Source: Ehretia macrophylla
Lineage: Eukaryota > Streptophyta > Magnoliopsida > Boraginales > Ehretiaceae
Direction: 5' to 3'
DNA length: 64,000 bases
Assembly (NCBI GenBank): GCA_037974665.1
Contig: CM075773.1
Coordinates: 48,562,080 to 48,626,079, forward strand
Position numbers and translations under genes: made by a program. The first letter of the stretch is position 1; each line of letters starts with the position of its first letter. Of the stretch, positions 15,703 through 60,098 are shown in pieces. The notes beneath the pieces are model-generated. The model was not told the origin of the DNA and made no database searches. It saw only the letters and a program-made list of their open reading frames with translations.

Positions 15703-16386
15703 ATGAATACTAATGGTGATTATAATTCTGATCTTGCTTTTCTTGAATCAATAAGGCAATATTTGCTTGATGATCAATTTGAAGCTCCGGAAACAAATGC
15801 TAGCACAATGTACTGCAAAAGCAACAACTTGTTTCCTTGCTTGACTGACAGTTGGGGAGAGCTTCCATTAAACGAGAATGACTCAGAAGACATGGTGCTT
15901 TACGGGGTCTTTCATGACGCTGTTAGTGCAGGGTAGCTTCCATCAACAACCGCCAACATCACTGTAAAAGCTGAGCCTGAAATGAGCTTTGAATCCCTGG
16001 TGGTGGCGGTACCGGAGACGGTGGCAGTGATGGCGGAGGAAACCGTGTTACCGCCGCCTGTAAAGAATTACAGGGGAGTAAAGAGGCGACCGTGGGGAAA
16101 GTTCGCGGCAGAGATAAGGGACCCGGCAAAGAATGGGGCCCGCGTGTGGCTCGGGACATTTGGGACAGCGGAGGATGCAGCATTGGCCTATGACCGGGCA
16201 GCGTATCGCATCCGCGAGTCACGTGCGTTGCTTAACTTTCCGCTCAGGATTAATTCTGGCGAGCCTGAGCCGGAGAGTGTTAGGGTTAGGTCAAGGAGGT
16301 CATCCATGTCGCCTGATTCCTCATCCTCCTTGTCGGAGAATGGATCACCGAAGAAGAGGCAAAAGGCAGTGAAAGTGGTGGCATGA
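15703..16386 (+). pseudogene. ERF group IXa transcription factor, copy 1, with in-frame stop
   Basis: From the ATG at 15703 the frame gives the IXa N-terminus ([15 protein letters not shown], then [20 protein letters not shown]) and stops at TAG 15934-15936, codon 78, where copies 2 and 3 have TGG (Trp). The same frame is open again to TGA at 16384-16386. From the next methionine (15982) it encodes 134 residues with an AP2 domain ([20 protein letters not shown] to [10 protein letters not shown]) and the SPKKRQK basic tail. One nonsense change therefore separates a 77-residue N-terminal peptide from an AP2-bearing remainder. Within AP2, the usual Arg of YRGVR is Lys, at a DNA-contacting position in the AtERF1 structure, and RIRGSRA has become RIRESRA. 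Family members bind GCC boxes in ethylene/jasmonate signalling. Either a pseudogene or, if re-initiation occurs, a truncated DNA-binding protein. Confidence 0.9.
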
Positions 16387-17036
16387 AGGGTAAAGGTTAA
16401 CATTATATTTTGTTTAAGTGACACTTGTTACGTAAGATGCCTGAAATTTGGATAATGTAGATTTTGAAGTCTAAGTAACGTGTACTACCTTCTTGACCTA
16501 TAGCTACGAGTGGCCATGTTCGGATCCCAAGTGTAGGGGTAGGTAGGGGCCGAGGTAAAAAGCACAAAAAGAAAATTATAATTAGGGTGAATAGCATATC
16601 GGTCATTTGTGTTACATTAAAAGTGCGCATAAAATCATGTGTTATGAAAAGTAGCAGTTATCCCCCTGTGTTTTATACGAATGTTACACATTACATCCCG
16701 TCATTTAAATACCCATTATAGTTAACGAAAATGGTAATACATGCGCGTGGCTCTCGTCTATAATATATTTGATGTTTAGAAATTTATTTGAATGGACAAA
16801 AATACCCTTCAAGCACTTCATAACTGCCTCTGACCCCATTTTTGCACTCAAACAAATCTGAAACAAGAGAAAAACTCCATTTTTTCACAACCTTTTATCT
16901 GAAGCTTCGACAAGAAAAGAATAACGTCATTTGTTTATTCTCCACTCTCTTGCGCTAGCTTTTCAATACTTCATGGTGAGTGTTTAAAATTTATTACTCT
17001 TGTTATTTTTTTGATTTCAAATTTATGGTTATAGTA

Positions 17037-17465
17037 ATGGGTCATAATAATTTTATGAAGGATTCAAGATTGTCAAGCATGACCGGTAGAAGTTCAACTA
17101 ATATTGAGCTAGACTTGCGCTATTTGAATAGAAGATGCTATTGTCGAAGATTAGCGGATATCCGTGTCGTTGCAGATTGGAATAAGGATAGCTTCAGTTG
17201 TTTATACTTCACTTGTCAAAATCGAAAATGCAGATTTTTTAGTTGGTGTAATCCAAATGTAACAAGGTGGTTTCTTAGTGGATTACTTGTTCTTCCAAAT
17301 GTTCCACATGTGCTGGGTAATAGAATGGGTGAGAATGAAGAAGTCGACGATGGAGAAGAGGTCATGTGCCCCTCGAGAAAATATAACACCGGTGGTGAAG
17401 AGGTTAGGTGCAAAGTTGTCATGGTCCGTCGACTTCAACCCAAGAAAATAAAGATGTTGAGCTGA
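17037..17465 (+). CDS. GRF-type zinc-finger protein carried by the MULE
   Basis: The frame begins at ATG 17037 (MGHNNFMKDSR) and ends at TGA 17463-17465, giving about 142 residues. The segment CYCRRLADIRVVADW, then FTCQNRKCRFFSWCNP, matches the GRF zinc finger: paired Cys, a second Cys pair and the FFxW signature. The C-terminal half is acidic then basic, without further known domains. It runs opposite to the transposase of the same element. An upstream ATG followed by a GTGAGT-like donor near 16973 suggests a possible small first exon, so the start is uncertain. GRF fingers bind single-stranded nucleic acid in other proteins. Whether this is an element accessory gene or a captured host fragment cannot be decided here. 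Confidence 0.6.
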   Translation: MGHNNFMKDSRLSSMTGRSSTNIELDLRYLNRRCYCRRLADIRVVADWNKDSFSCLYFTCQNRKCRFFSWCNPNVTRWFLSGLLVLPNVPHVLGNRMGENEEVDDGEEVMCPSRKYNTGGEEVRCKVVMVRRLQPKKIKMLS

Positions 17466-18149
17466 TGAAGATGAAGAAACAACTTGTTTGGTGTCGTATC
17501 TTTTGTGCTTTTGTAATTGGTTAATTTGTTTCTTTTATGTTCAAGTGAGAGGTTACAATATGAGTTGTTAAGTTGATGTTTGTAATGAATGAAGTTTTAT
17601 GTTAATCTATGTTTGCTGTATGTTGAAGTTTATGTTTTAGAACTGGCCTGTCGGATATTTTTAATGTAACAAATGCGCACATATGAAATAAAAATGGTGC
17701 AATTTACCCCCTATGTTATGTAAAAATGGTGCAGATTACCCCTTTTGTAAAAAAAATGGCACAGATTACCCCCTGTGTATGTAAAAAAAATGGTGCATGC
17801 CGCCTCTACAATTAACACTTCCTTGTTAACTAACATAATTACACAACAAATCATAATAAAAAATGGCCAGCACATAGTCAATATATAGATTCCTTTTATA
17901 ACGACATCACATAATCTCATACATTCTACACAAAAATAAACAACATCACATACACCAAAGTTGTCTGCCATATAACAGCATCAAAGGGACCACATGGGTC
18001 AACATCCAAAAATCATAAACATATCCACCAAAGTTGTCTAAAGTGTATCATGCAAAACCCATAAAGACAGCCATATGGGTCAACATTCAAAAACCATAAA
18101 CACATCAAAGTTATTTACAGCTGTTAACTAATAGTTAGCAAAAAGCCAC

Positions 18150-57552: not shown

Positions 57553-59200
57553 AAGATATATAACTCAAAAGAATAATATTTTTTATGTTATTTACATAGT
57601 GTTCACTCTTTTTAAAAATTAATGTATTAAATATCAAAATTACTGATTTATAAAATAAAATATCATTCGAATAATATATAGCATGCTGAATTCAAAATCA
57701 CGTGGAACCGAAAGAGACATCAAAAGAAAATACCGAATGTAATGGTGGGGAACACGCAAACCCGCAATAACTTGGATGCATGGCCTACCACATCTATTGG
57801 TTTATTTACTTTATGAAAGACTTATCCAAGAAATCATGGTTAATCGTCTAGAAGCAATGTATCTGTACTTGCTGTTTCTGGGAAGATATCCTTCTCTCGT
57901 CCCTTTCTGGTTTCCCCCTTGGATTGATGGGAGGATGTTGCTCCGATGGTTTCTTGAAGAGCTTGAGGATCCAAAAAGACTTTGTGCAGCTCTTTCCTTT
58001 TTTGCTCAATTTTGCTGTTTTAATTGGTTAATTAGATAGTCGGTTGTCCAGTGCGGGAACGACTGATCAGCTACTTCAACCGACTAAAACATTAGCTAAC
58101 CATGTACTTAATATGATCATTCCATCTTAGGCTAACTTTCTTTGTTTTCTTTATCATTGTAAATGGTCGTTTGACCCATCTATGTTTATTTTCATTGTTC
58201 AATAAAATACACACAACCAAATTAGTCCAAAAAAAAAAACACAACAAAATAGTAAATTGGAAAGACCTTAATTGGTCTGTAAAAAATTCAAAAAAAGTCA
58301 TATTTGGGTAAAAAAGCTACATTACAATAACAATTACTTTTTCAAAAAAATTAGCGAACTTGCAACTTGAAAACAATTAGTATATATATTTGAGAAAATG
58401 GATGTTGACCCCTATGAATCAATGATTGTGAGAGTTCTTTTTCAAGGAAATAAATAATCATGGCTGAAACATAACTTTAAAATCCCGAATCCTAAGTAGT
58501 CTTCAATACAAAAACTAAGTGAGTAAATGAATCATCATTAGCAAATAAGCATGGTAGGGATATGAGAAATAAGATGAATTCAAGGATAAGTGAGTAAATG
58601 AATCATCATTATCGTGAAGAAGCTCGCAAGAAGAAAAAAATAATTACATAGGAAATGAGAGCAAAAAACTAAGAGCAATAAAAAAGAAATAAAATTTAGA
58701 GGGTTGTTTAGTCTTTAAAAGATGATTAACTAATTTTGTTACTTTGAATTGTCAATTATAACTTTTGAGCAAGGATTGGGTAAATGTTGAGTAAATCCAA
58801 AATTTGCAAATATTGAATTTCTAATTTTTTAAAGAAGTACTTCCAAATAATAAAAAAAAGTTAAATTTATAAATAAATTTTATAAAATTTCATGAAATAT
58901 ATTTATTCAAAATAATATGTAACACATGTTCTTTTATTGTTATTGCATTATTCTCTATATCTTCTCTTGTCATTTGACATCATTCGGTCACCGTATATTT
59001 TATGTTATTTTCCACTTTGTTGATATCATACCTTCACGTCTTTGTTTGTTATTTGCTACTTTTGATATGAAACACGTGTTAGCATACACATTACTATTTT
59101 AACTGTTGTGGTTTTGAAGAATTTTTCAGTCAAAAATTAAATTAAATAGCGACAAAAAACGCCACCCCACCTTTCATTATGTGTAATAACCCAAATTCAT

Positions 59201-59318
59201 CACGTGATTGAAAACGGCGCCCCCCTATTTGCAATCGAAGTTTCGAAGAAACACCAAAGCCTGCAATAAAATTCAATTAGTTCATGAACCTTTTTCCCCG
59301 AATGTAGCCTATATAATC
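59201..59318 (+). promoter_or_regulatory. promoter of the intact IXa ERF gene
   Basis: CACGTG at 59201-59206, a G-box bound by bZIP or bHLH (MYC-type) factors, precedes a GGCGCCCCCC block and the TATA box CTATATAATCCC at about 59309-59318, some 130 bases before the ATG. The same arrangement occurs in copy 2. That jasmonate-linked MYC factors act here is an inference from the G-box only. Confidence 0.65.
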
Positions 59319-59444
59319 CCGGTATACCCTTTCTCTTTGTCTAACCATTTCTTGAATTTTGAGTACATTTTCAAGCGAAACATTCTCGACCCAGAAAAGA
59401 TTTTACATAAAATTCTTCAGTTTTTGTTGAATCATTAAACAATT

Positions 59445-60098
59445 ATGAATAGTAGTGATTCTGATCTTGCTTTTCTTGAATCAATAAGGCGTTATTTGGT
59501 TGATGATCATCATTTGGAAGCTCCAGAAACAAACGCAAGCACGTTGTTTCCTTGCTCGACTGACTCTTGGGGAGAGCTTCCATTAAACGAGAATGACTCA
59601 GAAGACATGGTGCTTCACGGGGTCTTTCATGACGCTGTTAGTACAGGTTGGCTTCCATCAACGACCGCCAACATCACTGTAAAAGCTGAGCCTGAAATGA
59701 GCTTTGAATCCCCGGTGGTGGCGCTACCAGAGACGGTGGCAGTCATGGCGGAGGAAACAATGTCTCCGCCAAAGGGAAAGCATTACAGGGGTGTCAGGAG
59801 GCGACCGTGGGGAAAGTTCGCGGCGGAGATAAGGGATCCAGCGAAGAATGGGGCCCGCGTGTGGCTTGGGACTTTCGAGACAGAAGAGGATGCAGCATTA
59901 GCCTATGATCAGGCTGCATTTCGCATACGCGGGTCACGTGCGTTGCTTAATTTTCCTCTTAGAATTAACTCTGGTGAGCCTGAGCCAGTTAGGGTTAAGT
60001 CAAAGAGGTCATCGGTATCGCCTGACCGTTCTTCTTCCTCTGCGTCGGACAATGGCTCACCGAAGAAGAGGAGAAAGACGGTGGAAGTGATGGCATGA
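59445..60098 (+). CDS. ERF group IXa transcription factor (ERF1A/ERF2-like), intact
   Basis: An intronless frame of 217 residues runs from ATG 59445 to TGA 60096-60098. The N-terminus ([20 protein letters not shown], residues 7-26) and [20 protein letters not shown] (40-59) match the N-terminal blocks of Arabidopsis ERF1A/ERF2. The AP2 domain is residues 113-171 ([20 protein letters not shown] to [14 protein letters not shown]) with all usual DNA-contacting Arg, Trp and Glu residues. [20 protein letters not shown] and SPKKRRK (205-211, nuclear signal) close it. Proteins of this group are nuclear activators that bind the GCC box in ethylene, jasmonate and defence responses. It has a G-box and TATA promoter and lies about 15 kb from its broken sister. 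It is the only undamaged IXa copy in the window. Confidence 0.95.

What the first reader, a model, noticed from the sequence alone, without database searches (positions are those of the whole stretch)
15703..60098. Locally expanded ERF group IX cluster pairing IXa copies with a IXb gene
Three IXa ERF copies and one IXb ERF lie within 45 kb, with no other host gene between them. In Arabidopsis, IXa and IXb genes are neighbours twice (ERF1A At4g17500 with ERF6 At4g17490; ERF2 At5g47220 with ERF5 At5g47230), so the pair here is probably an ancient syntenic unit. What is unusual is the repeated copying of the IXa partner together with many kilobases of flanking DNA. IXa clusters elsewhere (tobacco NIC2, Catharanthus ORCA, tomato JRE/GAME9) control specialised metabolism, so lineage-specific expansion deserves attention.
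Basis: partly seen in the sequence, partly recalled or inferred. Interest (0 to 1): 0.75.

Follow-up and report, generated by a model that had tools for sequence, protein, structure and literature searches.

The report
Decaying tandem plant ERF gene cluster
This stretch of what looks like a plant genome holds three tandem copies of one stress-response regulator gene beside a related gene, but two of the three copies are broken, so it looks like an ordinary duplicated cluster in decay rather than a new control locus for metabolism.

Summary
The three + strand copies are group IXa type: the AP2 domain of copy 3 matches AtERF1 (At4g17500) at 54 of 58 residues. The fourth gene is probably IXb. Only copy 3 (59445-60098, 217 aa) is open throughout. 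The IXb frame stops just before an LPLSP-like stretch in another frame. The shared flanks fit one direct duplication of about 42 kb followed by a deletion of about 25 kb in the second copy; pooled divergence is equal for the two sets of segments (244/5611 and 272/6133 sites), though uneven within them. A false duplication from two haplotypes cannot be excluded. IXa-IXb neighbours are in print as an ancient tandem duplication, and about 53% of group IX genes are reported as tandem duplicates. No result supports a metabolic role. Verdict: an ordinary, partly degenerate member of a known kind.

The parts
15703..16386 (+). IXa copy 1, broken: in-frame TAG at 15934-15936 leaves a 77-aa N-terminal ORF; the AP2 ORF downstream stays open (first ATG 15982, 134 aa)
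33896..34798 (-). probable IXb ERF, 300 aa; an [10 protein letters not shown] stretch lies in another frame past the stop
44804..45441 (+). IXa copy 2, broken: 16-bp deletion at about 45014-45019 (between CATCA repeats), frameshift to TAA at 45023-45025, 73-aa N-terminal ORF; AP2 ORF downstream open
59445..60098 (+). IXa copy 3, open throughout, 217 aa
8625..15167 (+). block A, first copy; ends in the proximal promoter of copy 1; its left end abuts a CACTA-like terminus ending at 8624
51013..57077 (+). block A, second copy; ends in a copy-1-type promoter joined at about 57073/57074 to sequence like 39927 onward
39927..49172 (+). copy 2 arm (39927-40428, 42897-46382, 46857-49172)
57074..64000 (+). 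copy 3 arm (57074-63292 and 63930-64000), runs off the window
63293..63929 (.). short inverted-repeat (MITE-like) insertion private to the copy 3 arm, TA on both sides; the empty site is in the copy 2 arm
46383..46856 (.). insertion of about 470 bp private to the copy 2 arm, with imperfect 8-bp repeats at its ends
32323..32978 (+). remnant about 70% alike and collinear with -1.2 to -0.38 kb upstream of copy 3 (and copy 2); promoter of a lost IXa copy, or a shared repeat

Best explanation
A plant group IX ERF locus: a probable IXb gene with IXa copies in tandem. An old duplication gave two IXa types (copy 1, and the ancestor of copies 2 and 3; dS about 0.3 overall, 0.6 in the AP2 part). Later one direct duplication of about 42 kb copied the region with copy 1, IXb and copy 2. 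The second copy then lost about 25 kb (its copy 1, its IXb and the space between), which joined a cut copy-1-type promoter to the LINE-rich DNA left of copy 2's twin, now copy 3. Copies 1 and 2 have been broken before the DNA-binding domain. Copy 3 is the one IXa gene here that can make a full protein, expected to activate GCC-box genes like AtERF1. Shown: the copies, the lesions, the segment homologies, the equal pooled divergence, the private insertions. Inferred: the order of events, and GCC-box activation by copy 3.
For: AP2 domains in 4 of 4 genes. Copy 3 domain 54/58 identical to AtERF100 (= AtERF1, PDB 2gcc), 43/58 to AtERF96 of IXc. Lesions in copies 1 and 2. Homology of 8625-15167 with 51013-57077, of 39927-40428 with 57074-57552, and of 42897-49172 with 57549-64000 apart from private insertions. 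Pooled divergence 244/5611 versus 272/6133, Fisher p 0.82 (counts, test). Junction at about 57073/57074 with AATA shared by both parent sequences. A CACTA-like terminus exactly at the left end of the match, 8624/8625. Polarised by copy 1, the copy 2 branch has 8 nonsynonymous and 2 synonymous changes, as expected of a broken copy; copy 3 has 6 and 4; 1 ambiguous.
Against: Divergence is uneven within the sets (arms 117/3450, 117/2204 and 38/479; block A 102/2691 and 142/2920), so the equality holds only for pooled counts, and the arms include the copy 2 and 3 genes. Copy 3 carries derived changes in its N-terminal part (L38S, Y58H), so it may also be under weak constraint. Both outer boundaries of the duplication lie outside what can be seen. 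IXb rests partly on a reference typed from recall. The 39927-40428 piece itself had no Pfam match (39978-40232); 'LINE-rich' rests on zf-RVT beside it.
Confidence: 0.66

Rival explanations
1. Two haplotypes of a very heterozygous plant were joined end to end in the assembly: up to about 51 kb is one haplotype and the rest the other, with a 25-kb deletion. Copies 2 and 3 would be alleles of one gene, one broken and one intact.
For: A direct repeat with about 4.4% pooled divergence and insertions private to each side is what such a join would look like. The window holds only A, C, G and T, so no run of N marks or excludes a join.
Against: 4.4% is high for allelic DNA in most plants (general knowledge). 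It would not explain copy 1, which differs from copy 3 at 84 of 645 aligned bases.
Confidence: 0.17
2. Two separate events: a 17.1-kb tandem duplication (39927-57073 copied to 57074 onward) plus an independent duplication of block A with a copy-1-type gene. A further IXa copy would then lie about 11 kb beyond the window.
For: The junction at 57073/57074 reads equally well as unit end joined to unit start. The uneven divergence within the sets leaves room for two ages.
Against: It needs two events whose pooled divergence is the same by coincidence.
Confidence: 0.14
3. A working IXa cluster controlling specialised metabolism, as in NIC2, ORCA or GAME9.
For: Same subgroup and the same habit of local copying; CACGTG boxes within 1.2 kb upstream of 3 of 3 IXa copies.
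Against: Two of three copies are broken; the AP2 domain of copy 3 is close to AtERF1; clade II membership untested.
Confidence: 0.03

Closest known systems
Arabidopsis IXa-IXb neighbours (At4g17500 = AtERF1 with At4g17490 = ERF6)
   Same: An IXa gene beside an IXb gene (adjacency inferred from the locus numbers, given in PMC7593309 and PMC7220888, passages seen). PMC11011629 reports IXb as an ancient tandem duplicate of IXa.
   Different: Here the IXa side is in three copies, two broken, spread over 45 kb of DNA with many transposon remnants.
ORCA cluster of Catharanthus (five genes over 70 kb; PMC8186833, passages and section 18 seen)
   Same: Tandem IXa ERF paralogues over tens of kb.
   Different: The ORCA genes were tested as activators in that paper; here one IXa copy of three is open throughout and no function is known.
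VviERF6L clade of grape (PMC7350745, passages seen)
   Same: Expanded group IX ERFs, some contiguous; some members lack N-terminal motifs or CMIX-5.
   Different: The grape clade resembles IXb and has 18 members in the reference genome; here the copied partner is IXa.

Membership tests
ERF group IXa (AtERF1/ERF2 type) | AP2 domain closest to AtERF1 (At4g17500) | tested here: met
   Identity to AtERF100 over 58 residues: copy 3 54, copy 2 53, copy 1 52; to AtERF96 (IXc) 43, 42, 42; to recalled AtERF5 (IXb) 45, 44, 43 (PDB hits). Few references, no tree
ERF group IXa (AtERF1/ERF2 type) | N-terminal region joined to the AP2 domain in one open frame | tested here: inconclusive
   Met in 1 of 3 copies (copy 3), not met in copies 1 and 2. 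Likeness of copy 3 to AtERF2 over residues 5-211 (57.6%) rests on a recalled sequence
IXa clade II (ORCA/ERF189/GAME9 type) | Placement in the clade II tree | not tested
   No ORCA or ERF189 reference sequence was at hand
ERF group IXb (ERF5/ERF6 type) | AP2 domain and upstream region like ERF5 | tested here: inconclusive
   AP2 alone does not decide: 46/58 to recalled AtERF5, 45/58 to AtERF100, 45/58 to AtERF96. Over longer stretches recalled AtERF5 scores best (residues 93-261, 46.7%, 140 bits; recalled AtERF2 residues 165-262, 110 bits)
ERF group IXb (ERF5/ERF6 type) | C-terminal serine-proline motif (CMIX-5, MAP kinase site) | tested here: not met
   The frame stops before it; [10 protein letters not shown] is in another frame past the stop. 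That this stretch is CMIX-5 is recalled. In grape 4 of 18 ERF6L proteins also lack CMIX-5 (PMC7350745, passages), so this alone does not exclude IXb
Tandem segmental duplication | Direct repeats in the same orientation including non-coding flanks | tested here: met

The most novel reading that the evidence does not exclude
The two broken copies are not dead. Both lesions fall close together (codon 69, and within codons 71-78, of copy 3 numbering), cleanly between the N-terminal region and the DNA-binding domain, and both leave each half open. The copies could make 73-77-aa N-terminal peptides, or AP2-only proteins from an inner ATG, that dampen copy 3.
Probability: 0.05. Interest if true: 0.45.

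Novelty: new member of a known kind. Interest (0 to 1): 0.17.

Why it matters
It is a readable example of how an ERF cluster may grow and decay: a large direct duplication, a deletion that removes most of the new copy, and the breaking of two of three regulators. It also warns that counting AP2 domains in a cluster overstates the number of working regulators.

Tried and rejected
Own-genome search: no genome held for this window, so synteny and copy number elsewhere were not tested. Rfam at gathering thresholds over the whole window: 0 matches. Paper searches: IXa with IXb clusters (9 papers, 8 listed), CMIX motifs (mostly off-topic), ORCA/ERF189/GAME9 clusters (2 papers), clade 2 residues (24 papers, 15 listed), ERF1A-ERF6 adjacency (0 papers), broken ERF copies in arrays (2 papers, neither on IXa by its title). 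PMC6981732 (passages) gave nothing used here.

Rejected: a simple triplication. Rejected: assembly artefact of a single gene, as far as copy 1 goes (84 of 645 bases differ from copy 3). Gene conversion between copy 1 and the copy 2/3 lineage over codons 42-89 is suggestive only: 2 of 48 third positions differ against 43 of 167 elsewhere, Fisher p 5e-4 with the boundaries chosen after looking; longest-run test p 0.0075 on third positions but 0.065 on all sites. Treated as chance because below the curated cut-offs: BPS1, RXLR, ORF6N and YbjQ_2, NRDD and zf-C2H2_aberr. One zf-RVT match (41810-42127) is also below its cut-off. first translated copy 2 one base out of frame; searches use the right start (44804).
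Full report
What is there. The window is of low G+C content and holds only A, C, G and T; by its genes it is plant DNA. No genome is held for it. Four AP2 domains are found. Copy 3 at 59445-60098 (+) is an open 217-aa frame. Its best PDB match is AtERF1 (2gcc, E 1.3e-39): 54 of 58 residues of the AP2 domain, against 43 of 58 for AtERF96 of IXc. PMC7593309 (passages seen) names At4g17500 as AtERF100, formerly AtERF1, and places AtERF1 in IX-a. Copies 1 and 2 give 52 and 53 of 58.

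Two of three IXa copies are broken. Copy 1 (15703-16386) has an in-frame TAG at 15934-15936, at a codon that is tryptophan in the other two copies. Copy 2 (44804-45441) lacks 16 bases between two CATCA repeats and runs into TAA at 45023-45025. Both keep an open AP2 half, which is why ORF lists and domain scans still show them. Copy 1 also differs from copy 3 and AtERF1 inside the domain, among others R to K at position R150 and G to E at position G195 (numbering from the K144-V206 span of 1GCC given in PMC7593309). Polarised by copy 1, the copy 2 branch has 8 nonsynonymous and 2 synonymous changes and the copy 3 branch 6 and 4, with 1 ambiguous; at codon 147 each branch was given one change. 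These numbers are small, and they show that copy 3, though open, is not strongly constrained.

The fourth gene, 33896-34798 (minus), encodes 300 aa. Its AP2 domain alone does not separate IXb from IXa or IXc (46, 45 and 45 of 58; the IXb reference was typed from recall). Over longer stretches recalled AtERF5 scores best (residues 93-261, 46.7%, 140 bits, against 110 bits for recalled AtERF2), so IXb is probable, not shown. Its frame stops just before [10 protein letters not shown], which lies in another frame. That stretch resembles the C-terminal serine-proline motif that I recall for ERF5/6, so this gene too may have lost its tail.

How the copies arose. Self-comparison shows three homologous sets: 8625-15167 with 51013-57077; 39927-40428 with 57074-57552; and 42897-49172 with 57549-64000 apart from private insertions. 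Placed in order, the DNA from 51013 on repeats 8625-49172 in the same orientation (first offset 42,388 bases), except that the part equivalent to about 15167-39927 is missing, as is the part equivalent to 40429-42896. The join at about 57073/57074 puts a copy-1-type promoter beside sequence like 39927 onward, with AATA common to both parents. That sequence lies next to a zf-RVT (LINE) remnant at 39.2-39.6 kb, but had no Pfam match of its own. Pooled divergence is 244 of 5611 sites for block A and 272 of 6133 for the arms (Fisher p 0.82). These counts leave out 11323-12207 and the private insertions, and include the copy 2 and 3 genes. Piece by piece it is uneven: block A 3.8% and 4.9%; arms 3.4%, 5.3% and 7.9%. 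One duplication followed by a deletion is the simplest account; two events (a 17-kb tandem duplication and a separate copy of block A) remain possible. The left match ends exactly at TTGTAGTG (8617-8624), which I recall as a CACTA-type terminus, and 50691-51012 has no counterpart in 1-8624, so the true left boundary is probably outside the window. A MITE-like insertion in the copy 3 arm (63293-63929, TA on both sides, empty site in the copy 2 arm) and an insertion of about 470 bp in the copy 2 arm (46383-46856) show that the arms have evolved apart, though two haplotypes could do so too.

Older layers. Copies 1 and 3 differ with dS 0.33 over 212 codons, 0.60 in the 65 AP2 codons, but at only 2 of 48 third positions over codons 42-89, a hint of gene conversion. 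A remnant at 32323-32978 is collinear and about 70% alike with DNA 1.2 to 0.38 kb upstream of copy 3: the promoter of a lost IXa copy, or a shared repeat.

Against what is known. [quoted passage not shown] PMC6528166, PMC8186833 and PMC11439498 (passages seen) describe IXa clusters that regulate metabolism, file them under clade II or 2 of IXa (the first and the last), and, in the first, infer that clusters arose independently in different plant families. The present locus is thus a member of a known kind, distinguished mainly by its decay. Nothing here supports a metabolic role. The most novel reading not excluded is that the halves of the broken copies are still made and modulate copy 3; no result favours it, and the changes in both domains speak against it.

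Noticed in passing
3067-8624: Transpos_assoc domain (E 5e-19) at 3067-3693 and a CACTA-like TTGTAGTG terminus at 8617-8624; that they belong to one element is inferred, and no left end was found in the window.
   Followed up: partly
19012-19439 (minus): MuDR DNA-binding domain (E 4e-6) and a SWIM match just under its cut-off, between copy 1 and IXb.
   Followed up: partly
about 50691-56836: Block A seems to contain a large element with about 380-base inverted ends (50815-51194 against 56297-56680, 76%); parts of its ends resemble 63288-63800, so the insertion in the copy 3 arm may be a short relative.
   Followed up: partly
39230-39553 (minus) and 10558-10869 (minus): LINE-type remnants: zf-RVT (E 2e-8) and RNase H-like RVT_3 (E 7e-10).
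   Followed up: partly
15262-15517: Insertion of about 256 bp in the copy 1 promoter between the CACGTG box and the TATA region, AAGTT on both sides.
   Followed up: no
6462-7475: Tandem repeat of roughly 300-bp units, about 79-81% alike.
   Followed up: no
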